64,000 nucleotides of DNA from Tubulanus polymorphus (Eukaryota; Nemertea; Palaeonemertea; Tubulaniformes; Tubulanidae), in contig NC_134031.1 of assembly GCF_964204645.1 (NCBI RefSeq), forward strand, positions 21,139,307-21,203,306. The letters run 5' to 3'. The notes under the pieces are model-generated. The model had not been told where the DNA came from and did no database searches. It worked only from the letters and a program-made list of their open reading frames with translations. Positions 15,541 to 55,147 of the stretch are shown in pieces; positions within the stretch are counted from its first letter, which is position 1; each line of letters starts with the position of its first letter. The position numbers and the translations under genes were made by a program.

Positions 15541-15666
15541 CAGTTTTTCTTCCCTAGTTTTCCAAAATTCGGATTAAGCCGATGCAGATTAAACGATTTA
15601 GTTTGACTTCACCCATCGAACTGGCCCCAGGGCACTAAAATTACCAAGAAACAAACACTGACGAGT

Positions 15667-15875
15667 GTTGGCCTGTTTAATAAACGCAGAAACCCTAGTT
15701 TTGGCCTGTTTAATAAACGCAGTAACCCTAGTGTTGGCCTGTTTAATAAACGCAGAAACCCTAGTGTTGGCCTGTTTAATAAACGCAGAAACCCTAGTGT
15801 TGGCCTGTTTAATAAACGCAGTAACCCTAGTGTTGGCCTGTTTAATAAACGCAGAAACCCTAGTGTTGGCCTGTT
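15667..15875. repeat. 33-bp minisatellite in unit 0
   Basis: About six units of the 33-bp repeat. Because 33 is divisible by three and the unit is stop-free, open frames appear on both strands. They are not genes. Confidence 0.92.
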
Positions 15876-15920
15876 ACCACACTGACCATAAATATTCACA
15901 AACAAGGTCAGCCACCAGAA

Positions 15921-16445
15921 CTCAGCGGTCTAGTGGTTAGCGTGCTCGGCTGGCGAGCTGGAGGTCGCAGGTTCGAGTCCTGCTAGGGTTAGGGTTACGG
16001 TCGATCTAGGGTTAGGGTTAGTGCCTCAGGCCGGGGCTAATTTTTGGCCCAGCGAGGTGTTTGTAGTACGATGATCATCTGTTTGACTCGGGTTATTTTT
16101 TGGTCAATAGATTCTATACTAACTTATATATTTTGAACACAAATATTTGCTTTATCTAGTAGAGGCCACTTTATTTAAAAGATACTTCGCTCAAAACAGT
16201 ATTTTATTTCTGAATGAATAAAAGAGTTGGTGACATTATTCAATATATATAAAAACCACAATATCTACTTTACGGTTGGTATGCAACAATTTCCACTCTT
16301 TTCCATATAGGTGTCGCTTTGGATAAATGTCTATATCTCTTGACCCAATGGACCGATTACGATTAAACTTGTTACTCAGGAACTTTTATCAAATAGCACT
16401 CGGGGTGGGTGAAATCGCTCTAGGTTGAAGTTACACTGTCCTAAA
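15921..16445 (+). mobile_element. tRNA-derived SINE (unit 0)
   Basis: The head has an A box (ggtctagtggttagc, like the D arm of tRNA-Glu/Asp) and a perfect B box (ggttcgagtcc) at the right spacing: a type-2 RNA polymerase III promoter. Next come telomere-like gggttagggtta words, a central domain (gctaatttttggcccagcg) and a tail ending near cactgtcctaaa. Five copies with a head occur in the window. The independent copy at 59156 diverges from the others after cctaaa, which sets the 3' border. Confidence 0.8.
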
Positions 16446-16500
16446 ATAGCTCCAAACAACGTGAAATTGGTAGTTAGGCCTACTTCGAGTACGGGTAGAA

Positions 16501-16880
16501 GGGTTAGTGCCTCAGGTTGGGTCTAATTTTTGGCCCAGCGAGGTATTTGTAGTATGATGATCATCTGTTTGACTCGGGTTGTTTTTTGGTCAATAGATCC
16601 TACTAACTTATATATTTTGAACACATATATTTGCTTTATCTAGTAGAGGCCACTTTATTTAAAAGATACTTCGCTCAATACAGTAGTTTATTTCTAAATG
16701 AATAAAAGAGTTGGTGACATTTTTTATATATAAAAAAACCACAATATCTACTTTACGGTTGGTATGCAACAATTTCCACTCTTTTCCATATGGGTGTCGC
16801 TTTGGATAAATGTCTATATCTCTTGACCCAATGGACCGATTAGGATTAAACTTGATAAACAGGAACTGTTATCAAGTACT
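16501..16880 (+). mobile_element. Headless SINE copy
   Basis: The same body as the preceding SINE, starting at gggttagtgcctcagg without the tRNA-like head and ending with a diverged tail near 16880. It lies directly behind the first copy, so a local duplication is likelier than a separate insertion. Confidence 0.75.
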
Positions 16881-16971
16881 GCATCGACGCGTCGGGTTGT
16901 TAGAACTTACCAACTTCATAAGTGAGCCTACGGGGGCCTCTGGGTTCGAATTTGTGCTGGTGTTAGGGCTA

Positions 16972-18208
16972 TGGATGACCACACGTCCCGGTGTGAGGGC
17001 TATGGATGACATGTTCGTCACCCGATAGAGGAGAGAGAATTTCATGCCCTCCATGGTTTCTACTAAATGATACATGTCTTTTTGTGTCATATGCGCCATC
17101 AGCTGCACACAGGCCCGTCCAGTGAGAGGGTAGTCGGCATCATTAGGTTCCAATTTACCGAATATCATAAAATACGGCGATAAACCTTCACAAGCACCCC
17201 TAAAACCTCAATCAGTAAAGTATCAAGGCTGAAACTACCCCCGGCTCGATATTTCAAGGGATAACGTATCAAATACGCCCATCCCGCATCCCGCTGTCGC
17301 AATAGCTCATCCCCCTATTGTTGCAACACAATAGAACATAATAGCCGATATCCCCCATTGAGATCGATTAGCCAATCAGCGGCCGCGTACTGAAGCGTGT
17401 CTGGACTTGTCGCAGGCGCCGGGAAATTCGATTTCATCGAATAAATCGTAATATCAGTCGAATCGTGCGCCATCTTTCGTTATTCTGACTGGATTTCACT
17501 CGGAAAGGAATTAATTCAATCGGGAATCGTACGATCATTACGGAGAAATTGTTTTGGAAAGTATTAAGATTGTATGAACTAAAAAATTGGAACGATTTTC
17601 AACCGAACTTCGATAGAAAATTTCGCCTGAAAACTGGATTTTGTGAACGTTTAAAGACTTGGACACGGAATTAAATTGACTCAGGATGGGATTAACTTAT
17701 GAAATAACTGGATCAGGTCGGAAACTGGTGAAAAGTTGCAGTTTTGTAGGTAGGAACATTTCTTTATATTAACGACTGTAATTATGTTATTTTTCAGTAT
17801 CATTAAAGGAAGTTTACAAATATCTTGAACTCAGAACTTAGGATAGAAACAGTTTCTATACCCGAATTGTATACGTTATCTAGTACCCGGTATATACAGT
17901 TCATTAATACGTTATCAAAACTTTCAGCCGTTTATTTTTTTTACCGATCCTAAATACCCCTCCTTGAATGGGCTAGATATAATATAGTGTTTTTATGCGT
18001 GACTTTTGCATGAAATTTATTTTTTAAAGTCATTTGAACGTGATGATATGTTAAGCAGAGCTTTCAGAATAAGTCGTCGTCGGCGGCTATGTCGGCCGTC
18101 GCATCCGACTATTAAGAATCCTGTGACGGCTATGAAATATCTCGTCTCATATCAATGATAGTAAGAAGGCTGTGATCTATGAAATTCCTCGGGTCATATG
18201 AGTTACCA
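16972..18208 (+). repeat. Promoter-like block, second copy
   Basis: A diverged copy of 13783-15060, about 3.2 kb downstream and in the same orientation. It keeps the CCAAT-type sites and the first-exon-like segment. The donor reads gttttgtaggtagg here instead of gtaagtagg, a weaker site. Confidence 0.65.
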
Positions 18209-18209
18209 A

Positions 18210-18770
18210 AGTAATTACTGATACTGATTCAGAGTGGTCCTGATGCTGAATAGAGGATGTACAGGGGTATCCCGCGTTCGAACCAAGTAATTACTGATAC
18301 TGGTTCAGAGTGGTCTTGATATTGAATTGAGGATGTACAGGGGTGTCCCGGGTTCGAACCCAGTAATTACTGATAACTGATTCAGAGTGGTCCTGATGCT
18401 GATAAGATGATGTACAGGGGTGTCCCGGGTTCGAACCCAGTAGTGGTCCAAGTTGTCCTGATGCTGAATAGAGGATGTACAGGGGTGTCCCGACCGTACG
18501 GTGCTGTCGCTATGCTCATCGTTAGCGGGATTTCCATACACTAACTGAAGTCAACTCTGGCAATCGTCGTGCTATCCAGCTATACTCCGTAACCCTTGCT
18601 TGCCAGAGTTGCCTAACGTTAGTGTATGCAAATCCCGCTACCGATGAGCATAGAGGCAGCACCGTACGGTAAAATGTTGATATCTTAAAAGTAATTACTG
18701 ATAACTGATTCAGAGTGGTCCTGATGCTGAATAAAGGATGTACAGGGGTGTCCTGGGTTCGACCCCGCCA
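18210..18770. repeat. tRNA-like 76-bp tandem array (unit 0), split by a fold-back element
   Basis: Units of about 65-76 bp with the pattern gtaattactgatactg, then aggatgtacaggggtgtc, then ccgggttcgaaccc. The last word is palindromic and matches a tRNA B box. The array is interrupted at 18493-18670. Similar arrays occupy the same place in units A, B and C. Confidence 0.8.
18493..18670. mobile_element. 178-bp fold-back MITE (unit 0 copy)
   Basis: Ends are accgtacggtgctg and its reverse complement. The arms, about 60 bp, are nearly complementary (gctcatcgttagcgggatt against the reverse complement of aatcccgctaccgatgagc). Copies with the same ends lie at 20757, 34392 and 45728. Confidence 0.88.
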
Positions 18771-19538
18771 CGAAAAATGATTAAATAACGCACACACGAC
18801 TTACAGCAACATTTATCTATATTTATTCCTCATTGTCATGTAACGCACCTGCCTTTTTAAGAATAGTAGTTAGACCATCGAATTGAAACCCTCGCATACC
18901 TGGATAAGAAAGAATAAATGAATCCCTCGAGTGGACACCAGGGGTCGCAGTTTCACAAAAAACGATGCATTTTTTAACTGAATTTGTTAAGATATTTAAT
19001 CTGGATCAAATCTCACAAAAAAGACAAAACAGATGAACTTCATAAGTAAATGAGTAAATGAGTAAATTCATGAGTAAATTATTTCTATGAAACTGAACCC
19101 GTGGGATTTACGTGTGACGTCAACACTAGTTTGTTAGAAATTAATAACTGTACCAACATTAGAGCTTTATATAAGGAGAGTAAATTAATGGTATGATAGA
19201 ATCTCCCTAATTCCGATCATTGGGACCAACAAAATTCATCCGTTTTACGGCAAATCCGGATTAAAAGTCATTTTCGTGTATATTAATGATTAAATTGACT
19301 GTAAATATTATCCGGATTAGACCAAAATTCGGATTAAGCCGATGCGGATTAAACAGTTTAGTTTGACTGTATTAGCCAATAGAATCAGTCTTCACCCATC
19401 GAACTGGCCCCAGGGCACTAAAATTACCAAGAAAAAAACACTGACGAGTGTTGGCCTGTTAAATAAACACAGAAACCCTAGTGTTGGCATGTTACCACAC
19501 AGACTACACGTATTCACAAACTAAGTCAGTCACCACAA

Positions 19539-20050
19539 CTCAGCGGTCTAGTGGTTAGCGTGCTCGGCTGGCATGCTGAAGTACGCAGGTTCGAGTCCTG
19601 CTAGGGTTAGGGTTACGGTCGATCTAGTGCCTCAGGTTGGTGCTAATTTTTGGTCCAGCGAGGTATTTGTAGTACGATGATCATCTGTTTGACTCGGGTT
19701 ATTTTTTGGTGAATAGATTCTATACTAACTTATATATTTTGAACACAAATATTTGCTTTATCCTTAGAAGCCACTTTATTTAAAAGATACTTCGCTCAAT
19801 ACAGTAGTTTATTTCTGAATGAATAAAAGAGTTGGTGACATTATTCAATATATATAAAAACCACAATATCTATTTTACGGTTGGTATGCAACAATTTCCA
19901 CTCTTTTCCATATAGGTGTCGCTTTGGATAAATGTCTATATCTCTTGACCCAATGGACCGATTACGATTAAACTTGATACACAGGAACTTTTATCAAATA
20001 GCACTCGGGGTGGGTGAAATCGCTCTAGGTTGAAGTTACACTGTCCTAAA
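19539..20050 (+). mobile_element. tRNA-derived SINE (unit A)
   Basis: Same family as 15921-16445, with the A box ggtctagtggttagc and B box ggttcgagtcc intact. Confidence 0.8.
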
Positions 20051-20310
20051 ATGGCTCCAAACAACGTGAAATTGGTAGTTAGGCCTACTACGAGTACGGG
20101 TAGAACACAGTTTGAAATCGTATCGTTGTAGGTTATCGTAAAGAAGATGAATACGACGATTAACAGTACAAATATCGTTATAGACACGGTTTTAGTCGAG
20201 ACATTGATCGCCGGGTTTAAACATTCCTGGATATGACCATGTTTCACAATTAAATTCATCTTCTGAATGAGGACACCATCGAACACGTGTCTAATCGCAT
20301 CGTAATGGGT
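20051..20310 (-). pseudogene. Two-transmembrane exon remnant (unit A)
   Basis: On the minus strand a frame reads through two hydrophobic helices, about SITIFVLLIVVFIFFTITY and VLPVLVVGLTTNFTLFGAIL, joined by a short YNDTISNC loop. Codon choice (ACG, TCG, GTC, GTA) resembles the real coding exons of the TRAF gene rather than the AT-rich spacer, so this looks derived from a host exon. The pattern Ser-Ile-x-Ile, a helix, Asp, then a helix with TT-x-x-TL resembles TM6-TM7 of class C (GABA-B-like) receptors, but this is only a resemblance. Unit A lacks one base relative to C near 20272, breaking the 5' end of the frame, and the 3' end reads into the SINE tail. It is present in A, B and C. Confidence 0.45.
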
Positions 20311-20319
20311 ACGGGGTGT

Positions 20320-21226
20320 CCCGCGTTTGAACCAAGTAATTACTGATACTGGTTCAGAGTGGTATTGATACTGAATAGAGGATGTACAGGGGTATCCCGA
20401 GTTCGAACCCAGTAATTACTGATACTGATTCAGAGAGGTCCTGATGCTGATAAGATGATGTACAGGGGTGTACCGGGTTCGAACTCAGTAGTGGTCCAAG
20501 TTGTCCTGATGCTGAATGGAGGATGTAGGGGTGTCCCGGATTCAAATCCGGTCTATTGGTACTGATTCTGATTGGTCCTGATGCTGAATCGAGGATGTAC
20601 AGGGGTGTGTCCCGGGTTCGAGAACCAGTAATTACTGATACTGATTCAGAGTGGTCCTGATGCTGATTAGATGATGTACAGGGGTGTCCCGGGTTCGAAC
20701 TCAGTAGTGGTCCAAGTTGTCCTGATGCTGAATGGAGGATGTACGGGGTTGTCCCGACCGTACGGTGCTGCCGCTATGCTCATCGTTAGCGGGATTTCCA
20801 TACACTAACTGAAGTCAACTCCGTTACACTTGATTGCCAGAGTTGACTAACGTTAGTGTATGAAAATCCCGCTACCGATGAGCATAGAGGCAGCACCGTA
20901 CGGTAAAATGTTGATATCTTAACAAAAGTAATTACTGATAACTGATTCTCATTGGTCCTGATGCTGAATGGAGGATGTACAGGGGTGTGTCCCGGGTTCG
21001 AGAACCAGTAATTACTGATACTGGTTCTGAGTGGTCCTGATGCTAATTAGATGATGTACAGGGGTGTCCCGGGTTCGAAACCAGTAGTGGTCCAAGTTGT
21101 CCTGAGTGTGAATAGAGGATGTACGATGTATCCCGGGTTCAAACCCAGTAATTACTTGTACTGATTCAGAGTGGTACTGATGCTGAATATAGGATGTACA
21201 GGGGTGTCCCGGGCTCGAACCCAGCA
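20320..21226. repeat. tRNA-like 76-bp tandem array (unit A)
   Basis: About ten units of 65-76 bp carrying the B-box-like palindrome gggttcgaaccc (variants cggattcaaatccgg, gggttcgagaacc). It is split by the MITE at 20757-20904. Minus-strand frames spell a degenerate GHPCTSSIQHQD-type repeat, with no sign of selection. Confidence 0.85.
20757..20904. mobile_element. Fold-back MITE, 148-bp internally deleted copy (unit A)
   Basis: The same ends as the 178-bp copies, but about 30 bp of the centre (tctggcaatcgtcgtg region) is missing, so the hairpin apex is shorter. Confidence 0.85.
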
Positions 21227-22506
21227 CTATTACAGAGGTTGTTTCTCAAAAATGATTAAATAACGCACACACGACTTACAGCAACATTTATCTATATTTA
21301 TTCCTCATTGTCATGTAACGCACCTGCCTTTTTAAGAATAGTAGTTGGACCATCGAATTGAAACCCCCGCATACTAAGGTAAGAAAGAATAAATGAATTC
21401 TTTCACAAAAAAACGATGTATTTTTTAACTGAATTTGTGAGGAATCTGGATCAAATCTCACAAAAAGATCTTTTTTGTTGATCTTTGATAATTAATCCGT
21501 ATATGTGAAACCGTACCCTCGGTAGGATTTGGTTTATGATGCGAGGGTTTCAATCAGATTTAGATGCTGCAGTTTCGCACTGAATAGCGAGTATTTAATA
21601 CCATCGAGTCCAGTTTCACAGAGAAAGTATCAATCAATTTCAACTTGGATTTACTTTTTTCTTCAAAATAAAATGTTTGAACGCAATTGGTTTGTGAAAC
21701 TGTACCCTGAGTGAAGTTTTTTGAGTAAACTGAACCCGTGGGATTTACGTGTGACGCACTGAGTGTGTGTGAAACTGCTGGCGTCTGTAATCACAACTAA
21801 AACAACACAGAAAATTCATCTTTATTTCAAATAAAACAGAACAACAGTTCACACGAAATATTATAGTCCCATAATAAAGAAAACCTGTCGATATTTCAAC
21901 TTTATGGTTTCATTGATTGAGTGACTTGTCAAAACATGTCCATATTACATCATTATACAATATGTGTATCATACAATTTTTTACAAAACCAGACCAATAA
22001 AACTGGGTCGTTGGGTACAAACAATTACAAACTAATGCAACCAGTTATCGCTGCTTTACAGCTACATTTAATCTTCAATTTCAACTTTCACTAAAACTTT
22101 AACACCCACTATATAGAAACTTAATAGAAGTAAAAGAGACAACATTTTGGAGTCTCTGTAGAGACCATCATCAAGTCTGAAGAATAACTAAAACAGGGAA
22201 AAACAAGTTAATTAGGAAAGTAAAGCGAGTGTTCAGTGCTAAGGTTGAGAGGTTTTGTTATTTTGTTCGTATAGGTTGTTCTAGTTATTTCTTCATTATA
22301 CTTTTATTATTTTGATTCTTGATAAATGAATTTTGCCTTTCAAATTTGCATATAACAGGGTTTAAATTATATATTCTATGCCTGAGTCAGGCTATTATTC
22401 TATTAGCAAAAATGACACCACAGCTTTGAGAGACGAATCAGGGGATGACTCTAATGTTTTTATGTATACGTGATACACAGTCTATCAAACCATCACAAAC
22501 AGTAGG
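21227..22506. other. Unit A spacer
   Basis: Contains the array tail (acgcacacacgacttacag; tcctcattgtcatgtaa) and short words such as cagtttcaca and gtgaaactgtaccct that recur in inverted forms. These look like fragments of a fold-back family of which a full copy sits in unit C at 46154. From about 21780 the sequence is AT-rich with no recognised gene. It is conserved in unit B but largely missing from unit C. Confidence 0.5.
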
Positions 22507-22507
22507 C

Positions 22508-22659
22508 TGCCCGTGCCGGTCGGCACAGATAAACAATATTCATTTGGCTTTAAACTTAAAATTGCAGATCTGAAATAAGTGGCATCATATCAATCTCCAG
22601 GTAGATGGCTGGTCCCTGTCCCTGTCAAATGGCAAATTGGTCCCGATCCCCACTTCGTC
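22508..22659 (-). other. Terminal exon-like segment, minus strand (unit A)
   Basis: On the minus strand an acceptor ttctctattctag at 22660 opens a frame reading DEVGIG, then LPFDRD and QPSTW. In units B and C the exon runs on into an AATAAA on the minus strand followed by the hairpin gtgccggtcggcac; in A about 50 bp is inserted there. It looks like the last exon of a minus-strand transcript. Equivalent segments lie at about 36133-36238 and 46776-46881. The product is not recognised. Confidence 0.3.
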
Positions 22660-22965
22660 CTAGAATAGAGAAAACTTGCGTCAGCAAATATTACATAGAA
22701 AATGTTCAATTGAATTAACAGTCAAGTGGGAATTGTCTCCATGACATAATTCGGTAACTAGAATCTATAATTACCTTATAATACTAGATAATTCAATACC
22801 ATTATTCAATCTTTGATCACTTTTCAAACTGTTCTATTGGACAAATTTCATGCTGCAAAAAATCATTATACTATGAAAATACTAAGTAATGTATTTATAA
22901 CAGTCTGAAATTTGGGCTAAATTCTATTGGAAAATCAATCATTTTCAAACTTGTGTTGAGCAGAA

Positions 22966-23008
22966 TTAAGCAGCAGCAGCCGCCGCAGCCGCAGCAGCAG
23001 CAGCAGCC

Positions 23009-23050
<42 letters not shown>

Positions 23051-23076
23051 GCAGCAGTAGCAGCCGCACTGCTTTC
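22966..23076 (-). other. CAG tract; poly-alanine exon-like segment (unit A)
   Basis: Plus strand: about 33 CAG triplets interrupted by CCG and one TAG. Minus strand: behind an acceptor-like gtgattctcag, the frame reads ESSAAATAAAA and continues as poly-Ala to a TAA. The tract is 117 pure CAG in unit B and about ten triplets in unit C, where the acceptor AG is also mutated (ctccgg). It may be an exon of a minus-strand transcript or only a repeat. Confidence 0.4.
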
Positions 23077-23304
23077 CTGAGAATCACACATAAAAATTCT
23101 GTACAGAATAATTAAATGTTAGAATATAATGAAATTAGAGCACAGTGGAGTGATGAAAGACTCACCATTTCTAAACTCATATCAGATTAGTTCAGTGCCA
23201 TCTAGCAGGATTTCACTTCCAACAGTAATAATGTCATGAAGTTAAGAGAACTGATGATTTTCTGAGAAAATAAATTCTTAAAACGATAGCAGCAGCTTCA
23301 GCAA

Positions 23305-23915
23305 CTAGAGCTTCTTTACTCTTTGAAGGTGAATATTTTTAATTTCTCCAGTGCCAAAAAGTGTTGGGCGTATTGCATTCTGGAAAGAGAAAATTATGCC
23401 AGAAAATGGTTAATGAAATAGATAGAAACTGCAACTCTGTTTGTGTTCAATTGACAGAAAACCTACCAGGTTAATGAGTAGTTTATCACAATGTGTCGAG
23501 TATATGCAGATTTTTGAGAGGTTTGATGGTAGCTTTAGACTGCATCCTCAAGTAAAACGTTGATACCTGCCAACATTGACCGATCAAAACATCATTTTCT
23601 GGACTTGATTTGAAGATCACCACAAATTACTGCAATAAATCGATATAAAACTCACCGCTTCTGACTCGTTTGATTTGTAGAGCGCAATGTTTACTGCAAG
23701 TTCAGCTTTATTTTAGACCCTAGAATACAACAGTTGTATAATTTTGATGATTCGAACTTTGACCAGAATAGAAGTGATTGAAATTTCAACTTCACTGATT
23801 AATGTAGCTTCTAATCAGGAAATGAGTTTATAAATGTACAGTCAAACAGAGACTAGAATCAGTAGAGATATTTACCGGTACCGTATTGGTTTTGAGGATC
23901 TAAAGCGATGTCCAT
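23305..23915 (-). other. Chain of small exon-like segments, minus strand (unit A)
   Basis: Four minus-strand segments have AG and GT borders: 23876-23915 (starts ATGGACATCGC, donor gtaaat), 23656-23693 (donor gtgagt), about 23467-23513 (donor gtaggt; the acceptor is intact in B and C, mutated in A) and 23305-23379 (acceptor ctctttccag, ends in TAG). Lengths of 40, 38, 47 and 75 nt join in two open ways. One starts at the ATG and gives MDIALDPQNQYGT, VNIALYKSNESEA, then KSAYTRHIVINYSLT and a stop. The other, entered from the upstream repeat exon, reads DGHRFRSSKP and on to HLQRVKKL and a stop. Units B and C have matching segments. Neither product is recognised; a non-coding transcript or decayed gene is equally possible. 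Confidence 0.3.
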
Positions 23916-24139
23916 CTTAAACAAATGTGAAGTGAATTCCCAATGTTTACTGTTCACAGATTCTATCAAGGGTTCCAGTTATTTCAGCTCCTAAATACAA
24001 ATTTTAGAAATTGTCAGTTAAGTTGTTATGAAATAAGAGCAGTTTCACAAAAAAATCAAACTAAGCCGTGATCTTTGAGTGATTGAATGCTGGAAACATA
24101 AACAGATAGAATAATTTATATAGAACAGTTCTCTAAAAA

Positions 24140-25198
24140 CAAGAAGCCTGTCGGCTTATATAGCTCCGCTGTCTTTGTTGTGGCTTGGAGCATAGACTAT
24201 CACATCAGTATCTATTTGAAACTAGATGTTCAGGGACATTATAGCCATTTGGAGAAGGGCCACAATACCAATAATCATACTAACATACTCTAAACTGACA
24301 AACTGTTGGAACTGAAGTCATAAGTGGAACAAACTGTAGTCCCCAAGTATAGGCACCAAGTGAAATTTATCAAAAATCTATGCAATTGCTTCGATATAGA
24401 ATGGCTCTATACTTTTGTAGGCACTCCCCAATAGATCATTCATATGAAGTTTGGTTGAAATCTACTGAAAACTGGAGTAGAAGTAGAAATTTAAGTGAAA
24501 ATCTAAAAATAGCCCTAATTTGCATAATTTATGCAAAATCAAAAGTATGGCTCTATACTTTTGTAGGCACTCCCCCATAGATCATTCATACCAAGTTTGA
24601 TTGAAATCCGCTGAAAATCGATGGAGGAGTAGCGATTTTAGTGAAAATCTAAAAATAGCCCTAATTTGCATAATTTATGCAAAATCAAAAATATGGCTCT
24701 GTACTTTTGTAGGCACTCCCCCATAGATCATTCATACCAAGTTTGATTGAAATCCGCTGAAAATCGATGGAGGAGTAGCGATTTTAGTGAAAATCTAAAA
24801 ATAGCCCTAATTTGCATAATTTATGCAAAATCAAAAATATGGCTCTGTACTTTTGTAGGCACTCTCCCATAGATCATTCATACCAAGTTTGATTGAAATC
24901 CGCTGAAAATCGATGGAGGAGTAGCGATTTTAGTGAAAATCTAAAAATAGCCCTAATATGCATAATTTATGCAAAATCAAAATTATGGCTCTGTACTTTT
25001 GTAGGCACTCCCCCATAGATCATTCATACCAAGTTTCATCAAGATCCCATCAGAACTGTAGGACTAGTAGGGATATAAAGAAAAAGTTGACGCCGGACAC
25101 CGAACGGACGGACGGACGGACGGACGAACGACCGGACGGACGGACGACGAACCCCCTAACCCATCAGCTCCGCTGACCTTCGGTCACAGCGGAGCTAA
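24140..25198. mobile_element. Pearl/CvA-like Helitron-type non-autonomous element
   Basis: Units B and C read straight from ctctaaaaa to taatgaatttcc. Unit A has 1,059 bp in between, so this is a clean insertion. The element has a 5' palindromic start (agcctgtcggct), five tandem copies of a core of about 146 bp (starting near 24398, each with ggctctatacttttgtagg-type words), an ACGG microsatellite (about 25103-25145), and a terminal hairpin agctccgctg/cagcggagct ending in CTAA before a T. It also carries tagctccgct near the 5' end and agcggagcta at the 3' end as subterminal inverted repeats. Tandem cores plus an ACGG tail match my knowledge of bivalve pearl (CvA) elements, which belong with the DINE-1/Helitron group. 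No coding capacity. Confidence 0.8.
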
Positions 25199-25223
25199 TA
25201 ATGAATTTCCAAACAGGTTTTAC

Positions 25224-27749: not shown

Positions 27750-27753
27750 AGTT

Positions 27754-27785
<32 letters not shown>

Positions 27786-29566: not shown

Positions 29567-29622
29567 GACTAAAACTACGACTAAACCACCTGTACTTGTA
29601 CCTAAACCCTAAAGCCCCACCA

Positions 29623-44622: not shown

Positions 44623-44668
44623 ACCACACTGACCAACCATATTCACAAACCAGGTCAGCCATCAGAAC

Positions 44669-45182: not shown

Positions 45183-45438
45183 TGGCTCCAAACAACGTGA
45201 AATTGGTAGTTAGGCCTACTACGAGTACGGGTAGAACAACACAGTTTGAAATCGTATCGTTGTAGGTTATCGTAAAGAAGATGAATACGACGATTAACAG
45301 TACAAATATCGATATAGACACGGTTTTAGTCGAGACATTGATCGCCGGGTTTAAACATTCCTGGATATGACCATGTTTCACAATTAAATTCATCTTCTGA
45401 ATGAGGACGACCATCGAACACGTGTCTAATCGCGTCAT
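45183..45438 (-). pseudogene. Two-transmembrane exon remnant, longest frame (unit C)
   Basis: The best-preserved copy. From an ATG at 45438 the frame reads MTRLDTCSMVVLIQKMNLIV, passes through both hydrophobic helices and runs on into the SINE tail, stopping at 45067 (123 codons in all). The C-terminal 38 codons are therefore SINE-derived. A short fused protein is conceivable, but no promoter or splice context supports it. Confidence 0.45.
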
Positions 45439-45467
45439 AATGGGTACGGGGTGTCCCGCGTTCGAAC

Positions 45468-46070
45468 CAAGTAATTACTGATACTGGTTCAGAGTGGTCT
45501 TTGTACAGGGGTGTCCAGGGTTCGAACTGAGTAGTGGTCCAAGTTGTCCTGATGCTGAATGGAGGATGTACAGGGTTGTGTCCCGGGTTCGAGAACCAGT
45601 AATTACTGATACTGACTCAGAGTGGTCCAGATGCTGATTAGATGATGTACAGGGGTGTCCCGGGTTCGAACTCAGTAGTGGTCCAAGTTGTCCTGATGCT
45701 GAATGGAGGATGTACACGGGTGTCCCGACCGTACGGTGCTGCCGCTATGCTCATCGTTAGCAGGATTTCCATACACTAACTGAAGTCAACTCTGGCAATC
45801 GTCGTGCTGTCCAGCTATACTCCGTAACCCTTGCTTGCCAGAGTTGACTAACGTTAGTGTATGAAAATCCCGCTACAGATGAGCATAGAGGCAGCACCGT
45901 ACGGTGAAATGTTGATATCTTAACAAAAGTAATTACTGATTCTGATTGGTCCTGATGTTGAATGGAGGATGTACAGGGGTATCCCGGGTTCGAACCAGTA
46001 ATTACTGATACTGGTTCAGAGTGGTCTTGATACTGAATAGAGGATGTACAGGTGTCCTGGGTTCGACCCC
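45468..46070. repeat. tRNA-like 76-bp tandem array (unit C)
   Basis: The shortest version, about six units, split by the MITE at 45728-45905. Confidence 0.85.
45728..45905. mobile_element. 178-bp fold-back MITE (unit C)
   Basis: Full-length copy with ends accgtacggtgctg and complement. Confidence 0.88.
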
Positions 46071-46153
46071 GCCACGAAAAATGATTAAATAACGCACACA
46101 CGACTTACAGCAACAATTATCTATATTTATTCCTCATTGTCATGTAACACACC

Positions 46154-46373
46154 CGGACGCAGTTCCACAGTTGTGTTAGAGTTAACTCCGAGTTAAAGTT
46201 AATTCATTTTCAATAAGTTACCCCAGGGCCCAGTTTCACAAAAAGGTTTAACTCTTAAATCGGTTTAATTTCTTCATTAATTCACTTTATCTTAAATCGA
46301 TTTAGGCCTTAATCCTTTTTGTGAAACTGGGCCCAGAATTAAATCTTAACTCAACAACTGTGGAACTGGACCC
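46154..46373. mobile_element. Nested fold-back insertion private to unit C
   Basis: Units 0, A and B read catgtaacgcacctgcc-tttttaag without a break; C has about 220 bp between. The outer ends are cagttccacagttg and its complement. Inside is a second inverted pair, gggcccagtttcacaaaa (46226) and its complement (about 46317-46334). The inner pair resembles the cagtttcaca fragments scattered through the unit spacers, suggesting one fold-back family inserted in another. Confidence 0.75.
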
Positions 46374-47179
46374 TGCCCTTTTAAGAATAGTAGTTGGACC
46401 ATCGAATTGAAACCCTCGCATACCAGAGTAAGAAAGAAAAAATGAATTCCTCGAGTGGACACCAGGGGTCGCAGTTCCACAAAAAACGATGCATTTTTTA
46501 ACTGAATTTGTGAAGAAATTTAATCTGGATCAAATCTCACAAAAAGATCTTTTTTGTTGATCTTTGATAACTAATCTGTATATGTGAAACCGTACCCTCG
46601 GTAGGATTTGGTTTATGATGCGAGGGTTTCAATCAGATTTAGATGCTGCAGTTTCGCACACTGAATAGCGAGTGTCCAGTTTCACAGAGAAAGGATGAAT
46701 CAATTTCAACTTGGGATTTACTTTTTCGTTCAAAATAAAATGTTTGAACGCAATTGGTTCGTGAAACTGTACCCTAGGCTGCCCGTGCCGGTCGGCACAG
46801 ATAAACAATATTCATTTGGCTCCAGGTAGATGGTTGGTCGCTGTCCCTGTCAAATGGCAAATTGGTCCCGATCCCCACTTTGTCCTAGAATAGAGAAAAT
46901 ATTACATAGAAAATGTTCGATTGAATTAACAGTCAAGTGGGAATTGTTTTCATGACATAATTCGGTAACTAGAATTTATAATCACCTTATAATTCTAGAT
47001 AATTCAACACCATTATTCAATCTTCGATCACTTTTCAAACTGTTCTATTGGACAAATTTCATGCTGCAAAAAATCATTATACTATGAAAATACTAAGTAA
47101 TGTATTTATAGCAGTCTGAAATTGGGGCTAAATTCTATTAGAAAATCAATCATTTTCAAACTTGTGTTGAGCAGAATTA

Positions 47180-47222
47180 AGCAGCAGCAGCTGCAGCAGC
47201 ATCAGCCGCACTGCTTCCCGGA
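47180..47222 (-). repeat. Short CAG tract (unit C)
   Basis: About ten triplets with CTG, CAT and CCG interruptions. The acceptor-like AG of A and B is changed to CG here. Confidence 0.7.
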
Positions 47223-48305
47223 GAATCACACATAAAAATTCTGTACAGAATAATTAAATGTTAGAATATTATGAAATTAGAGCACAGTGCAGTGATGAAA
47301 TACTCACCATTTCTAAACTCATATCAGATAAGTTCAGTGCCATCTAGCAGGATTTCACTTCCAACAGTAATAATGTCATGAAGTTAAGAGAACTGATGAT
47401 TTTCTGAGAAAATAAATTCTTAAAACGATAGCAGCAGCTTCAGCAACTAGAGCTTCTTTACTCTTTGAAGGTGAATATTTTTAATTTCTCCAGTTCCAAA
47501 AAGTGTTGGGCGTATTGCATTCTGGAAAGAGAAAATTATGCCAGAAAATGGTTAATGAAATAGATAGAAACTGCAACTTGTTTGTGTTCAATTGACAGAA
47601 AACCTACCGGGTTAATGAGTAGTTTATCACAATGTGTCGAGTATATGCAGATTTCTGAGAGGTTTGATGGTAGCTTTAGACTGCGTCCTCAAGTAAAACG
47701 TTGATACCTGCCAACATTGACCGATCAAAACATCATTTTCTGGACTTGATTTGAAGATCACCACAAATTACTGCAATAAATCGATATAAAACTCACCGCT
47801 TCTGACTCGTTTGATTTGTAGAGCGCAATGTTTACTGCAAGTTCAGCTTTATTTGAAACCCTAGAATACAACAGTTGTATAATTTTGATGATTCGAACTT
47901 TGACCAGAATAGAAGTGATTGAAAATTCGCCTTCACTGATTAATGTAGCTTCTAATCAGGAAATGAGTTTATAAATGTACAGTCAAACAGAGACTAGAAT
48001 CTGTAGAGATATTTACCTGTACCGTATTGGTTTTGAGGATCTAAAGCGATGTCCATCTTAAACAAATGTGAAGTGAATTCCCAATGATTACTGTTCACAG
48101 ATTCTATCAAGGGTTCCAGTTATTTCAGCTCCTAAATACAAATTTTAGAAATTGTCAGTTAAGTTGTTATGAAATAAGAGCAGTTTCACAAAAAAATCAA
48201 ACTAAGCCGTGATCTTTGAGTGATTGAATGCTGGAAACATAAACAGATAGAATAATTTATATAGAACAGTTCTCTAAAAATAATGAATTTCCAAACAGGT
48301 TTTAC

Positions 48306-48534
48306 CTGCTGCTGCTGCAGCTGGTGGTGGCGCTGTGGCTGCATAGTGCTGGTACTGCAGGTACTGCCAGTGCTGCTGCTGCAGCTGCTGGTGGCGCTGT
48401 GGCTGCATGGTGCTGGTACTGCGGGTACTGCCAGTGCTGCTGTTGCAGCTGCTGGTGGCGCTGTTGCTGCATGGTGCTGGTACCGCGGTTACTGCCAGTG
48501 CTGCTGTTGCTGCTGCTGCGGTGTGTATCTCATC
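48306..48534 (-). other. 64-bp repeat in exon-like segment (unit C)
   Basis: About 3.3 units, 229 bp, so the exit phase differs from A and B and would join in frame to the MDIALDP segment. A TAA after 14 codons from the ATG blocks that frame. Confidence 0.35.
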
Positions 48535-48777
48535 CTGTAACTGAGAGTAAAACAGTAATTTTTAGTTCAAAAATAATTCAAAATATCAACAGAGACTGTG
48601 AAGCATTCTGTGGAGAAATTCATTACCAGTTTTATACTTACCTTAAATGAGCCTGTTTAAATTGTAAATTATATTGCATTCATTTCATCCTGAAAAGAAA
48701 AAGAAACAATAATCAGTGGCAATAGCGCAGAATGTAACATCTCAAATTATCAATCAATCAGACAGAAACAGTACAGG

Positions 48778-51700
48778 ATTTCTGTAGATTAAACTGCTGT
48801 ACTTATTTCATACTGATTGTACAGTTACAGATACATGTAACATTGTGTACAGATACAGAGTACAGATCACTGCATTACTTCATCCTGTGATTGAACAGTG
48901 ATTTAATGTTCTTTCATCTTCATTAGATTCCCATCCATCTAACTAAAACATCAGAACATTTTAACTCATCTAACCTCCCGACCCGACCCTCCCAGACCCC
49001 TTCCCTCCCGCCCTCCCAAACCCCTTCCCTCCCGCCCTCCCTGACCCCTTCCCTCCCGCCCTCCTGGACCCCTCCCTCAATGCCCTCCCACCTGGCCCTC
49101 CCTCAATGCCCTCCCACCTGGCCTACCCTCAATGCCCTCCCACGTAGCCTTCCCTCAATGCCCTCCCATCATGCCTCCTCAACTCTGTTGTCTCCTCTTC
49201 ACACACCACTCATCTGTACAATAACTACAAAACGATTTGCCATTTTTCACGATCATATCAATTTCATTTATAAATCAAAATCCTTAATCAATTGCATCAT
49301 TGATGGGACTCACAGATACTTTCTCTACACATTTTGGAGGCATTCAGATGACCTCAAATGATCATATGCCTGGGTTGGTCTTGAAAATCACATGGCTTCA
49401 TTTTTACAGATGATTTCTTTATCAATTTCATCAAATTATTCCTATTATTTCTACTCCCTCTAATAAGTATTCACAATATATCTCAGTTTCACGACAAGTT
49501 GCAGCAGTCGTCTGTAAACAGATTTCATTTCATCAAATGATGCGAGTTTTAGTTGTAGAGGTTTCATCTACAAAACATCAAACTAAACCCGAGGAACTTA
49601 ATGTTGTAAGGTAGGGGGACGTATATGGAGGGTTCACCCGAACCAAGGAAATAAACCCGAACCAAACCTCCACACTCACAAAATGTCGTGAGAAAGGCAA
49701 ACACAAACCAAGGACAAGAATGATGGCTGAGATCAAAACAATTAATGCTATTGATGTTGCTTCACCAATTCAACATGACGTCACTAAATGAAACCATTGT
49801 GGACTATTTCAATACTCTCTACTAGAGGTTTCATATAAGCAAGTAGTTTATGGAATCCTATTCATAAAAGTTATAAGTCAATGTTTTTAAACTGCTGATG
49901 CAAAATATATACGTCATTAAATAATCTGTTCGATTGTCTTTTCAAGTTAACACTTAAACCCAGTGGAACAAATCAAACTCCAGCCATTTTTCCTTTATTT
50001 GCCATTTTTCGTTTTTACTCTTTTCTCTGACTTTTAGCACTTGAGTCGAGGTAGGAATAGACCCCTGCCCGCTCGCTAAGCGTGCAGGACACTAAACCTT
50101 CGAATTGCTCTCGGACCCCACTCTTTATATCAGCATTTCATGCTGTTTTATTTTATTCACGCATTCGCTTTACATTTTTTCATATGGCTTTTCCTTATTT
50201 GTCGTCTCACTAAAATTCTCATCAGTTCCGACTGGGATCAAGTTTAATCTTTTAGAGACAAAGAGCAAAAGATTGTGTTAGTTGCAGCAGCAGCAGCTGC
50301 AGCAGCACCAGCAGCAACACTGATACAGATGAATCTTTCATTAACTACGTCATTTGTTCCATTCTCAAATATTGAGTCATGAGGGCAACAGAAATAACTT
50401 TAAAAAACGCTAAATCTTTCATTTATGGCCTTGGTTTGGTGACCTAAGCGTCGAAGTTTGGTTCATAGCCCAGGTTTGGTGACCAAAGAGTCAAAGTTTG
50501 GTTCATGGCTCGGGTTTAGTGACCAAAGAGTCAAAGTTTGGTTCATAGCTCTGTTTTGGTGACCAAAGAGTCAAAGTTTGGTTCATAGCTCTGTTTTGGT
50601 GACCAAAGAGTCAAAGTTTGGTTTATAGCTCTGTTTTGGTGACCAAAGAGTCAAATTTTGGTTCATAGCCCTGTTTTGGTGACCAAAGAGTCAAAGTTTG
50701 GTTCATGGCTCAGGTTTAGTGACCAAAGAGTCAAAGTTTGGTTCATAGCCCTGTTTTGGTGACTAAAGAGTCAAAGTTTGGTCTATGGTTCTGATTTGGT
50801 GACCTCGGAGGGTAAATATAGCTCATGGCCCTCGTTAAAGGTAAGTCAGTTTTATGGCTTTGGTTTGATTAGCAAATAACATGAGAAATTGAGCGTTGCA
50901 TATGTTGAATAGGGGAATTGGACTAAACACTCATCACTAGAATAAAGTAAAGAATTATGTTTACACTGAATGGGCTCAAAATCTTGTACTAATTGATAAA
51001 GTCTGAAATAATTCTGGCTAATTTGAGTCTATCGGAAAATGATGCATTGATCGAAGTCTAAAAGCCATAAACTGACAAATTGATCGAGCACTGATAATAT
51101 TTTAAATAACAGCGGAGGATGAAATAACTTTCATAAACTGATATGATCGTGAAAAATGGCAAAATACACTAGATACACCTCTCCCCCGCTTTATCAGAGT
51201 CTCATTGTAGTAGGAAGATTGCCGTAGCCTAACTATAAAAACTACAACTACATCTGGTTGAATATCATTTGTTTTTATGGCTTTTAAATTCAGTAAAATA
51301 TTTCCTGATAGAAGTATAATTAGTTCGCAGCCCCTTAAATTCTGTCTAGAATAGAATTATAAGTCACAGGTAGAAATAGAATATTATCCTATTCTAAAAT
51401 GAATATAATAATAGAACAATAGTCTCTCCTTGTCAATCTTTGTCCCACCTAAAAATTGTACAGTTTATTTCAGAAATTGTGTCCCATCTTTTTGAAAAGG
51501 ATAAGTAATTATTAAGGATATCTATGAATAGTGATATACTGTGCCATGAAGGCAAATGAAGAAGTGTGTCTGAAAATCCATAAAAGTGATAACAAAACAT
51601 ATCACTTATTCTAATAAGTTCTATACTCTTCTTCCAAAAATGAAGAGTAGGTCTCTGTCTAAGAATCTGCAGAAAAAAGAGGAAGCAGCAATGAATGTGA

Positions 51701-52806
51701 ACTGCATCTCGACTCTCGTCAATAATTTTCTAAGTCGTCCTATACAGTTCTCAGTATTTACAGCCGTTTTTAAAATAGCACAGAAGAAAATACATCTTTC
51801 AGCTGGAAATGTATCAGTAAACCGCCAGATATCAACAGTAATTATTACGTATGATTGTTGTTTCATTCAATTATTAATGAAACCGTTTTTTGATCGGAGC
51901 CAAGGAGCAGTTTGTGATCATTCAAAAAATATCTCTCATTCCTGACCACATTAAATAATGGCCCTAAAATTTGAAACGTCCCAATTCAAAAATCTGGGGG
52001 CAATTATCTCATAACGATTGAGAGAAGTGACGGTGAAATTACGTGCGCACTCACCGGGGATCAAACCCGGGTCTCATAGAAATAACAACTAGTAAAATAG
52101 AACGAGTCCGATTGGCCGATGGTTATACAGCTTGTCATGCATAACAACTGAAACATGACATGTTGCAGTCACGTGTTTCATAATGATTAATCCTTTCTTA
52201 GAATAATAAAAAGATGGGACACATTTTCTGAAATATCCTGAACTTCAAGACTAAAACTACGACTAAACCACCTGTACTTGTACCTAAACCCTAAAGCCCC
52301 ACCATATATCCCTCCCTCCAAAGTCCTACCACCACCCCTACATCCCTCCCACCCTCCCAAGTCCTACCACCACCCCTACATCCCTCCCACCCTCCGGGAC
52401 CCCATCCCTCCCGGACCCCTTCCCTCCTGCCCTCTCGGACCCCTTCCCTCCCGCCCTCCCTCCCACACCCCTTCCCTCCCGCCCTCCCTCACCCCATCTC
52501 TCCCACCCTTCCTCCCAGACCCCTTCCCTCCCACCGTCCCCCACCCCAACCCTCCCTCCCTCTACCCCTTCCCTCCCCCCAACCCTACCCACCCTCCCTA
52601 AATCCCGTGGTTAGGTGAGTTGAATGTTCTGATGTTTTAGTTAGATGGATGGGAATCTAATGAAGATGAAAGAACATTAAATCACTGTTCAATCACAGGA
52701 TGAAGTAATGCAGTGATCTGTATCTCAGTATCGGTACACAATGTTACATGTATCTGTAACTGTACAATCAGTATGAAATAAGTACAGCAGTTTAATCTAT
52801 AGAAAT
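48778..52806. mobile_element. 4.0-kb inverted-repeat-bounded segment (unit C)
   Basis: Arms near 48778-48975 and 52609-52806. C-rich arrays at 48973-49170 and 52305-52606. Confidence 0.6.
50428..50806. repeat. 40-bp minisatellite, longest copy (unit C)
   Basis: Nine to ten units of gaccaaagagtcaaagtttg plus gttcatagctctgttttggt variants. Confidence 0.88.
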
Positions 52807-53684
52807 TCTAACTCTTAAGATACACATGATCTGATTATCAAGAAGGAACATGATTGATAACAGTTGTATTATTGACATCAGGAACCAGTTTCATATTGAT
52901 TAGAAATAACATTTGAGTTGATCACAATTTAGAAAACCTGTAAACCCGCTTACAGAAATAACAATCCCAACCATGAACTGATTATAGCCAAATATTCACC
53001 AAAAGAAATTTGAAATGATTGAATAAATGCAACAGGTTTCTGAGATTTCATTTCAAAACATGGTTTATAACAAACAATATAAAATTAGTCCCTTAAAATC
53101 AATTCAACCACCGATAAATAAATGTAACTTATCTTGAATTTCCACATAGGCTATAGTGATTCCTGATGTCATGCTGAATCCAAGAGTGATTCCCGATGTC
53201 CTGTGCTAAATCAAAAAAAGTCTGGTAGTAAAACACTGATTCCTTGTTGTCCTGTGCTGAATCCAAGAATGATTCCCGATGTCCGGCGCAAAACCAAAAA
53301 AGTCTGATTGTGAAACACTGATTCCTTGTTGTCCTGTGCTGAATCTGAGAGTGATTCTTGTTTTCCTGTGCTGAATCAAAATTCCCGTTGAACATGTTGA
53401 AGTGATACCTATAATAGACAAATCTAAGATTGTTTTCTTTCCTTAGAAATAACTGCAGAAATATCAAATCTAAAATCTAAAACTTACAAATTAGATTGTT
53501 CACTCAAATCTGCAGTTCGTTTATTCACGGGGTTTTTCTATCCACAGTTTAGGTTTTGCATCTAGAGTTGAACATGAAATATAAACAAAAAGGTAATGAA
53601 AAAATGAACAGTTTAAATATTATCTGTTTCTGAAACCGATGATGATCATCCTCATCAATATCACAGACGAATGGAGGCAAGTAG

Positions 53685-54030
53685 AGGCATCAATCCTCCT
53701 GCGGCAGGGACTCGATCCAGAATGCCACGGTACGAAACCCTGCCACACTAGACCTAGTGCGCAGCAGCTACACGCGCAGCTTAGATGATGTCATTAATAG
53801 CCAATCAGAAATTCAGTTTTATTTGAGCCCAGGTTTTGCCATTTATAGTTCTTCCGTGAAATTTACCTCAGCGATTAACGAGCAATCTGTTTGGTGCCGC
53901 AAGATTTCGCGCGGTAAAGCTGCGCATGTACCTGCGCACCCGGTCTAGTGTGGCAGGGGTTCGTGCCGTGGCTGAGTGTAGCAAGCGATGTCATCAGGTT
54001 CAAATCCCTCCCATGGGAGGATGTTGGTGT
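53685..54030. mobile_element. Fold-back of two tRNA-like heads (unit C)
   Basis: As in A. The left arm has lost the aacctgatggc stretch, so its B box is broken. Confidence 0.6.
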
Positions 54031-54781
54031 CCCACATGTTTGACTGCGATTAATAGGCCTATAGGTTAAGCGACAGATGAAATAAACTTACACTGTTTGA
54101 TTAAATCAGTCGATGGAATCATTTTAGAACAAATTCATTACAACACAGCGAGATGAAGCCCATCGTGATCTAGAAATATCAGGATGGAATGACGTCATGC
54201 TTGACTGAGCGCCACCGACCATGTGCACCGTTTGTTTGTAGGATGTGACTCTGAAATAATATGATTTCCCACAATATCTGAGATGGAATATTTTTCGCCA
54301 TTTAAACCAATGTTACAAACACTTACCAAATATTGAAATACTGATTTCAGGGGTCGGGAAGGAGGGTGGCAATGTTTAGGTGAGGTTTTTGCTTAATTTC
54401 GTGTTATGGTAAAGCACGCCATTTTGATATTGCGTCATAGTGTACCTCAGATTGGGATTCCCGCCGGTAGACTGGTCACCGCCACCTGCATTCGCAAGTA
54501 GAAATGGCAACCAGTCGATTGCAGGTCTCGGCTTCTTTTCGATTAGATTAGGTTTTGAATTCTACGCAATATTCAAAGAATTTATTCTAATGAAAACCAC
54601 GCTCTTTACCAATCTAATCATTCGTTTCGAGGTTTCCGTAATTACTACTTTAGTTCACAGAAATTCCGCTATCGTTATTCATAGGGGCAGCACTGAACGG
54701 TTGTAATTTGATGCAGTCTTGCTATTTTACTGCGGCATGTGAGGAATACAGATTTTTCTTAAGTCAAATTTCATTCATCAC

Positions 54782-55147
54782 TCAACACTAGTTTGTTAGA
54801 AATTAATAACTGTACCAACATTAGAGCTTTATATAAGGAGAGTAAATTAATGGTATGATAGAATCTCCCTAATTCCGATCATTGGGACCAACAAAATTCA
54901 TCCGTTTTACGGCAAATCCGGATTTAAAAGTCATTTTCGTGTATATTAATGATTAAAATGACTGTAAATATTATCCGGATTAGACCAAAATTCGGATTAA
55001 GCCGATGCGGATTAAACGATTTAGTTTGAATGTATTAGCCAATAGAATCAGTCTTCACCCATCGAACTGGCCCCAGGGCACTAAAATTACCAAGAAACAA
55101 ACACTGACGAGTGTTGGCCTGTTTAATGAACGCAGAAACCCTAGTGT
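54782..55147. repeat. Truncated macro-repeat unit D
   Basis: The first 366 bp of another unit, up to the first 33-bp minisatellite unit (aacgcagaaaccctagtg). At about 55147 it changes within a single word (ccctagtgtcccgacagag) into the 18-bp minisatellite, marking the array end. Confidence 0.88.

What the first reader, a model, noticed from the sequence alone, without database searches (positions are those of the whole stretch)
15541..55147. Tandem array of an 11-13 kb macro-repeat next to a TRAF gene
Seen directly: the junction word caacactagtttgttag recurs at 19120, 32078, 44023 and 54782, and at least a dozen landmarks recur in the same order in each interval. Units this large and this composite (SINE, exon remnant, arrays, fold-backs, exon-like segments) are unusual. 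Each unit looks like an amplified genomic segment rather than a simple satellite. Inference: amplification by unequal exchange, recent enough for near-identity by eye, with repeat-number drift since.
Basis: seen in the sequence. Interest (0 to 1): 0.85.

Follow-up and report, generated by a model that had tools for sequence, protein, structure and literature searches.

The report
Chromosome-end macrosatellite with telomere-like seeds
The repeat is real: it is a large, apparently non-coding tandem repeat shared between the ends of several chromosomes of an unnamed animal, and its units carry a short tRNA-like element with a telomere-like tail that is itself concentrated near chromosome ends.

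Summary
The macro-repeat is confirmed. Units of 12,958, 11,945 and 10,759 bp lie head to tail from 19121, collinear and 96.5-96.7% identical where aligned. The array is larger than stated: diverged pieces begin near 13003, and it runs about 60 kb past the window. At 54783 it switches to a second unit type, B, sharing only modules X and S with type A.

The window lies at C7:21.14-21.20 Mb of a 268-Mb genome with 12 chromosome-sized contigs. The unit boundary occurs 62 times, 57 within 509 kb of a chromosome end. In four arrays compared, units are as alike between arrays as within them (96.20%, 96.15%). This is a subtelomeric macrosatellite kept alike by exchange between ends, not a local event beside TRAF. 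Pfam and a synonymous-change test found no coding content.

Unexpected: module S holds a tRNA-like element followed by TAGGGTTAGGGTTA. Found with a telomere-free probe, 64 of 95 listed relatives lie within 1 Mb of an end (9% expected). A telomere-seeking SINE is the boldest reading, unproven. Species unnamed; no RNA or read data.

The parts
13003..19120 (+). shuffled left edge of the array: pieces of units B and A out of order
   Evidence: blastn of C7R against A and B: pieces up to 15.6 kb are 75-87% identical; from 15664 on some are 82-89% and five are 94-95% (15664-16500, 15927-16445, 16500-16878, 18690-18849, 18848-19021)
19121..32078 (+). unit A copy 1 (12,958 bp)
32079..44023 (+). unit A copy 2 (11,945 bp)
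44024..54782 (+). unit A copy 3 (10,759 bp), used as reference
54783..64000 (+). unit B, alternative unit type; continues outside the window to C7R coordinate 66319 (11,537 bp in all); 97.4% identical to a B unit on chromosome C4
54783..55147 (+). module X, start of the units and shared by A and B (also 19121-19484, 32079-, 44024-)
44345..44619 (+). 33-bp minisatellite after module X (8.3 copies here; 19.3 at 32400-33037; 6.4 at 15664-15875; a 32-bp relative at 6929-7280)
55144..56028 (+). 18-bp minisatellite (49 copies) that takes the place of the 33-bp array in unit B
44674..45185 (+). module S in unit A copy 3: tRNA-like element plus telomere-like seed and tail; other copies at 15927-16445, 16500-16878 (partial), 19545-20054, 33092-33602
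59160..59678 (+). module S in unit B (92-95% identical to the A copies of the window)
44745..44758 (+). telomere-like seed TAGGGTTAGGGTTA; 7 in the window, all on + (15984, 16007, 19602, 33163, 44745, 59217, 59240)
   Evidence: 7 matches, 0.02 expected with up to 1 mismatch
45441..46070 (+). stretch of about 76-bp units with the word GGTTCGAACC or close to it (found as tandem arrays at 18210-18442, 20309-20490 and 33870-34341)
   Evidence: read in the sequence; the other copies
36625..36979 (+). pure (AGC)118 tract in unit A copy 2; the longest pure run in the other ten aligned units is 13
48775..48975 (+). left arm of an inverted repeat inside unit A (201 bp; partner 52609-52809), each arm beside a C-rich array
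   Evidence: 96% over 202 columns
52609..52809 (-). right arm of the same inverted repeat
8688..11711 (+). TRAF-like gene left of the array (RING part from about 8688, MATH at 11349-11711); flank, not part of the repeat
   Evidence: RING just under its curated cut-off, MATH well above

Best explanation
The feature is a subtelomeric macrosatellite: head-to-tail units, mostly 10.5-14 kb, of two interchangeable kinds (A and B), shared by at least seven chromosome-end loci of this animal. Shown: tandem structure, location near ends, two unit types that share modules X and S, switches between types inside those modules, a shuffled array edge, equal identity within and between the four arrays compared, no coding content detected in the parts searched. 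Inferred: the shared modules serve as homology for ectopic exchange or break-induced copying between chromosome ends, which spreads and evens out units, while unequal exchange within an array changes copy number. The unit probably has no protein function; any structural role at the chromosome end is untested.
For: 62 junctions genome-wide, 57 within 509 kb of a chromosome end, where 4.7% of chromosome length lies; by locus 7 of 8 chromosomal sites. 45 of 53 spacings between neighbouring junctions are 10.4-14.1 kb (counted from the list). A copies on C1, C4 (both ends), C7 (both ends), C10 right, diverged ones on C5 and C10 left (hit lists capped); ten full-length B-tail hits on C1, C4 (both ends), C7 right, C10 right (capped). 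Mean identity 96.15% within arrays (14 pairs), 96.20% between (41 pairs), 11 units of four arrays. Trees of three segments: C7-right and C4-left copies interleave; C7-left copies group together (support 87, 76, 94). Switches fall in X (54783-55147) or S: a hybrid unit at C7R 99522-108396 passes from A to B inside S, and the C6 array stops at the 3' end of S. No Pfam family in six frames of A 46780-54800 and B 56030-63600; of 173 open frames tested for synonymous excess 2 are below p 0.05, best 0.045.
Against: One array (C6, 9.50-9.54 Mb) is internal and one relative lies at C7:20.17 Mb. At C10 right the array is inverted half way (6 junctions +, 10 -) and C5 left runs the other way, so orientation relative to the end holds for 45 of 57 junctions. 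Nearest neighbours per 1-kb block are in the same array 40.5 of 100 times against 28 expected, so some local homogenisation exists. Five pieces of the left edge are 94-95% identical, so edge decay is patchy. Of the contig ends read, few end in telomeric repeats, so distances to true ends are approximate. No reads were available to confirm copy number. The C1, C4-right, C10 and C6 units were not in the identity comparison.
Confidence: 0.82

Rival explanations
1. Module S derives from a telomere-seeking tRNA-type SINE: its telomere-like 3' tail lets it insert at or near telomeric DNA, and the seeds it leaves act as break and recombination points from which the macro-units grew.
For: Dispersed relatives share a 5' linker, a tRNA-like body and TAGGGTTAGGGTTA modules (14 loci read in part). 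With a probe that contains no telomeric letters, 64 of 95 listed chromosomal copies outside arrays lie within 1 Mb of an end (9.2% expected); copies with at most 2 mismatches are nearer than those with 3 (39 of 49 against 25 of 46, p 0.008). With a probe that includes the seed, 41 of 43 outside arrays.
Against: Dispersal by subtelomeric recombination would give the same distribution. Sense-strand orientation toward the end is not significant with the telomere-free probe (38 of 64, p 0.17; 28 of 43). No target-site duplication, partner LINE or insertion boundary was seen; the 5' end of the element lies outside what was fetched. The 14 loci were chosen by a pattern that includes the seed. Both lists were cut at 100 rows (of 119 and 175); the 19 unlisted linker matches follow the listed 3-mismatch rows, so the age comparison misses part of that class.
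Confidence: 0.2
2. The unit is an amplified multi-exon gene or pseudogene on the minus strand, so that the array is a gene cluster.
For: Splice-like sites and short protein-like stretches on the minus strand at 46880-48700, clearer to the eye in the diverged relative at C7:20.17 Mb.
Against: No Pfam family for three minus-strand frames of the A core or of the relative; sub-threshold matches only for single open frames (PARP_reg E 0.057, DUF2238 E 0.079); PDB matches no better than E 0.09; no synonymous excess; splice motifs not significantly enriched (minus strand 5 donors against 2.4, reached by 16 of 200 shuffles; 6 acceptors against 3.2, 12 of 200).
Confidence: 0.12
3. The tandem copies are an assembly artefact.
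For: Two C7-left copies are almost identical with an exact 11,169-bp period; the array at C10 right is mirrored.
Against: Units in the window differ by 3-4% and by private repeats such as (AGC)118 and 19 against 8 copies of the 33-mer, which a false duplication would not create.
Confidence: 0.03
4. The unit is a giant mobile element that inserted in tandem.
For: Internal 201-bp inverted arms and composite make-up.
Against: Most copies sit in arrays; no element protein in the frames searched; of the two internal sites found, the C6 block stops at the end of module S and the C7:20.17 Mb relative is diverged.
Confidence: 0.04

Closest known systems
Human macrosatellites (D4Z4, RS447, RNU2, CT47)
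   Same: Large tandem units of variable number; D4Z4 occurs on two chromosomes, 4q and 10q (PMC3599962 passages), and 4q is subtelomeric (abstract of PMC13199055 in a listing)
   Different: Those units are 3.3-6.1 kb and the four named here encode a gene (PMC3599962 passages, PMC13138017 abstract in a listing); here mostly 10.5-14 kb, two unit types, no gene found, seven end loci
Yeast subtelomeric Y' elements
   Same: Tandem units at chromosome ends; type I survivors contain tandem Y' arrays (PMC4700185, passages read); telomeric tracts between units (recalled)
   Different: No helicase-like frame found in the parts searched (helicase in Y' is recalled); seeds here are about 2.3 repeats inside a tRNA-like element; unit about twice as long (recalled)
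Subtelomeric segmental duplications of Schistosoma mansoni
   Same: Extensive exchange between chromosome ends in an animal (PMC10900676, abstract read)
   Different: There the duplicated segments carry gene families; here apparently non-coding tandem units
Telomere-inserted retrotransposons (SART/TRAS of Bombyx; MoTeR of Magnaporthe)
   Same: Elements at chromosome ends associated with telomeric sequence; MoTeR integration makes interstitial telomere tracts whose breaks start rearrangements (PMC7367193, abstract read)
   Different: SART/TRAS encode endonuclease and reverse transcriptase (PMC4700185, passages read; for MoTeR recalled); no frame was found in the parts of the unit searched, module S is tRNA-like, and insertion into telomeres is not shown

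Membership tests
Macrosatellite | tandem units of kilobase size, head to tail | tested here: met
Macrosatellite | polymorphic copy number between individuals | not testable with these tools
   one assembly only
Subtelomeric repeat | located near several chromosome ends and shared between chromosomes | tested here: met
   57 of 62 junctions within 509 kb of an end, 7 of 8 chromosomal loci, on 5 of 12 chromosomes; one internal site on C6
Yeast Y'-like element | encodes a helicase-like protein (recalled) | tested here: inconclusive
   no Pfam hit in six frames of A 46780-54800 and B 56030-63600; A 44024-46780 and the remaining parts of B were not searched in six frames
Yeast Y'-like element | telomeric repeats between tandem units (recalled) | tested here: inconclusive
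   the 11 aligned A units each carry 1-2 seeds of about 2.3 repeats inside module S, not long tracts between units; the truncated unit at C7R 91795-99521 has none
tRNA-derived SINE (module S head) | tRNA-like body with A and B boxes | tested here: inconclusive
   box-like words (labels recalled) and a T-arm stem in the fold; ARAGORN finds no tRNA in the window
tRNA-derived SINE (module S head) | dispersed copies with target-site duplications | tested here: inconclusive
Telomere-specific retroelement | insertion into telomeric repeats | tested here: inconclusive
   near-end concentration, no insertion boundaries read
Centromeric satellite | one array region per chromosome at the centromere | tested here: not met
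   C4 and C7 each carry arrays near both ends; centromere positions are not known

The most novel reading that the evidence does not exclude
A tRNA-derived SINE with a telomere-like 3' tail preferentially lands at chromosome ends, and the short telomere-like seeds it brings turn the neighbouring DNA into a recombination substrate. From such seeds, segments of 11-13 kb were copied again and again between chromosome ends into interchangeable A and B macro-units: an animal counterpart of yeast Y' amplification started by a non-coding element.
Probability: 0.17. Interest if true: 0.75.

Novelty: new variant of a known kind. Interest (0 to 1): 0.5.

Why it matters
Subtelomeres of invertebrates are, to my knowledge, little described. 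Here one 64-kb window leads to a system in which unit boundaries, exchange points and a telomere-tailed short element can all be read directly. It gives a testable case for how chromosome ends exchange sequence. If the telomere-tailed element does seek chromosome ends, it would be a non-coding element with an end-specific home whose mechanism could be tested. If not, it is still a clean example of an apparently non-coding macrosatellite homogenised between chromosomes.

Tried and rejected
Coding or gene-cluster reading: Pfam on X-coded frames of A 46780-54800 (both strands) and B 56030-63600 (both strands) gave nothing at E 0.5; the same for three minus-strand frames of the diverged relative L052 at E 1. 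Single open frames gave two sub-threshold matches. PDB searches of L052 gave five matches at E 0.09 or worse, the best a glycine-rich stretch. Synonymous-excess test (frames of 30 or more codons with 5 or more changes) and splice-motif test were negative. By eye, several short minus-strand stretches looked protein-like; I do not count them as evidence. A 61-bp word is unchanged in 49 of 53 copies, but I chose it because it was invariant in 11 aligned units, so it does not show constraint.

Rfam and tRNA searches of the window: none. Centromere reading rejected: arrays near both ends of C4 and C7. A chromosome fusion at the internal C6 array was considered; the 30 kb fetched of its edges and flanks hold only scattered TTAGGG or CCCTAA words, so it is open.

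Rows dropped: thirteen units were taken by junction spacing of 9-16 kb (eleven A, two B). For the A alignment I dropped the two B units and one of the two near-identical C7-left copies and added unit 2 of the window: eleven in all. The 16.3-kb hybrid stretch was not in it. One search used 97 chromosomal rows of the first 100 of 175 matches (three on unplaced contigs left out); one search used 95 of the first 100 of 119 (three on unplaced contigs and two in arrays left out).
Full report
What was checked. The junction word stands exactly at 19121, 32079, 44024 and 54783 and nowhere else in the window, against 0.01 expected with two mismatches allowed. A self-comparison shows long collinear matches between the three intervals. 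Cutting unit 3 into 200-bp pieces, 53 of 53 are found in order in unit 1 and 52 of 53 in unit 2. Units measure 12,958, 11,945 and 10,759 bp and are 96.5-96.7% identical where aligned. The most variable stretches include the internal minisatellites and simple repeats: the 33-mer has 19 copies in unit 2 and 8 in unit 3, and unit 2 alone has a pure (AGC)118 tract.

Extent. The window's own genome is held: 267.8 Mb in 77 contigs, 12 of them chromosome-sized (11.5-32 Mb). The window is C7:21139307-21203306, 420-484 kb from the right end of the contig. Left of 19121 the array does not stop sharply. From about 13003 there are shuffled pieces of the repeat: up to 15.6 kb they are 75-87% identical; further right some are 82-89% and five are 94-95%. 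To the right, repeat sequence runs on to at least C7:21263400.

Two unit types. Between 54783 and C7R coordinate 66320 lies a unit of 11,537 bp that shares its first 365 bp with the other units, then differs. Its twin on chromosome C4 is 97.4% identical, while both align with the other eleven units no better than unrelated DNA (about 53%). I call the common kind A and this kind B. They share module X (the first 365 bp and about 40 bp before the junction) and module S (about 520 bp; A at 44674-45185, B at 59160-59678). Changes from one type to the other fall in these modules: in X at 54783-55147, and inside S in a hybrid unit at C7R 99522-108396. The internal C6 array stops at the 3' end of S.

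Where it lies. A 34-base junction word with up to three mismatches occurs 62 times. Of these, 57 lie within 509 kb of a chromosome end, 3 are internal on C6 and 2 are on the unplaced contig C54. End regions of that size make up 4.7% of chromosome length. By locus, 7 of 8 chromosomal sites are near ends, on 5 of the 12 chromosomes. At five of the seven end loci all 39 junctions point the same way relative to the end. At C10 right 6 of 16 do, because the array is mirrored half way, and at C5 left 0 of 2 do. Of 53 neighbour spacings, 45 are 10.4-14.1 kb (counted). A 61-base core word of A was counted 53 times. Telomeric TTAGGG blocks lie between the arrays and the contig ends on C1, C4 left and C7 right (list cut off), and C10 begins with telomeric repeats.

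Exchange between chromosomes. Eleven A units from four arrays (C7 left, C7 right, C4 left, C54) have a mean identity of 96.15% within arrays (14 pairs) and 96.20% between arrays (41 pairs). Per 1-kb block, the nearest relative is in the same array 40.5 times of 100, where random choice gives 28, so there is some local copying. Quick trees of three segments (14, 15 and 14 rows) put C7-left copies together each time (support 87, 76, 94), but mix C7-right with C4-left. Two C7-left copies of 11,169 bp differ at one base and within one stretch of about 265 bp that looks like a shifted register. So there is recent local amplification at one end, and exchange between ends elsewhere. The C1, C4-right, C10 and C6 units were not in this comparison.

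No coding content detected. No Pfam family was found in six frames of A 46780-54800 and B 56030-63600, with stops read as X. The first 2.8 kb of A and the rest of B were not searched in this way; single open frames there and elsewhere gave only sub-threshold matches. Of 173 open frames of 30 or more codons with at least 5 changes, 2 show a synonymous excess below p 0.05, the best 0.045. Splice motifs are not significantly more frequent than in shuffles. A diverged relative at C7:20.17 Mb looks more gene-like to the eye, but had no Pfam family in its three minus-strand frames and no convincing structure match. The TRAF-like gene left of the array has a RING part from about 8688 and a MATH domain at 11349-11711. 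It is a neighbour, not part of the unit.

The telomere-like seeds. Module S begins with a tRNA-like element and then TAGGGTTAGGGTTA (in two of the window's A units the first seed is decayed and the second intact). Seven seeds lie in the window, all on the + strand (0.02 expected). In the four arrays held there are 35 forward and none reverse, after turning the left-end arrays round; 6 of the 35 are on the unplaced C54. These are copies of one element, so they are not 35 independent facts; a truncated unit (C7R 91795-99521) has none, and the mirrored half at C10 carries reversed ones. Genome-wide the T-arm-plus-seed word has 175 matches. Of the first 100 listed, 97 are on chromosomes: 54 inside the arrays, and of the 43 outside, 41 lie within 1 Mb of an end. 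Because that probe contains telomeric letters, I repeated the test with the 5' linker of the element, which has none. Of 119 matches the first 100 are listed; 95 chromosomal ones outside arrays were examined, and 64 lie within 1 Mb of an end (9.2% expected). Copies with at most two mismatches are more often near an end (39 of 49) than those with three (25 of 46; p 0.008). The 19 unlisted matches follow the listed three-mismatch rows. Orientation relative to the end is not significant (38 of 64, p 0.17). Fourteen solo copies read in part are only 67-86% alike, even with the selected probe bases included, so they are old and dispersed.

How it most likely works. Shown: tandem composite units, two types, shared modules, near-end position, equal identity within and between the arrays compared. 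Inferred: shared modules X and S provide homology for exchange or break-induced copying between chromosome ends, and unequal exchange alters unit number. A parallel for rearrangements started by breaks in interstitial telomere tracts is MoTeR in the blast fungus (PMC7367193, abstract and section list read); for tandem arrays of subtelomeric units, yeast type I survivors (PMC4700185, passages read); for exchange between chromosome ends in an animal, Schistosoma mansoni (PMC10900676, abstract and section list read). Human macrosatellites have units of 3.3-6.1 kb in the texts seen (PMC3599962 passages, PMC13138017 abstract in the listing). A review of telomere-neighbouring repeats (PMC9498494, passages) gave nothing used here.

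Novelty. As a class this is a macrosatellite near chromosome ends. Unit size, the A/B modularity and the telomere-tailed tRNA-like element make it a variant that I did not find described. That rests on eight literature searches in an open-access library, with the species unnamed, so it is weak evidence of absence.

Noticed in passing
window 36625-36979: A pure (AGC)118 tract in one unit; the longest pure run in the other ten aligned units is 13. Comparable in length to long disease-type CAG/CTG expansions (recalled).
   Followed up: partly
C10:13.94-14.20 Mb of the own genome: Junctions run + up to 14.019 Mb and - from 14.089 Mb; three pairs of B-related hits mirror each other with the exact coordinate sum 28,107,757, others with slightly different sums. 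The right end of C10 looks like a large imperfect palindrome or a join of haplotypes.
   Followed up: partly
L049-L051, C6:9501353-9540319: An internal block of the subtelomeric repeat (B tail plus three A cores) in C6; no array sequence in the fetched flanks (about 7 kb left, 19 kb right).
   Followed up: partly
L052, C7:20171601-20177600: A diverged relative of the middle of unit A (mostly 76-85%, with a 1.1-kb stretch at 95%) 1.45 Mb from the end; it may be an old copy that later exchanged with the arrays.
   Followed up: partly
L032, C4:1-300: The left end of C4 encodes a GIY-YIG domain (E 8.6e-6), as in Penelope-like retroelements (recalled).
   Followed up: partly
window 7941-8490: A 550-bp hairpin (92% self-complementary) beside the TRAF-like gene.
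   Followed up: no
C1:689315-690093 of the own genome: Tandem copies of the anticodon-arm region of the tRNA-like element, mostly at steps of 36-39 bp.
   Followed up: no
L034, C6:1-300: C6 begins with the same roughly 76-bp GGTTCGAACCC-type tandem repeat that occurs inside unit A.
   Followed up: no
C8 left, C9 left, C32, C45, C65: Unit B tail sequences, 88-95% identical, form clusters with shorter spacing on further chromosome ends and unplaced contigs.
   Followed up: no
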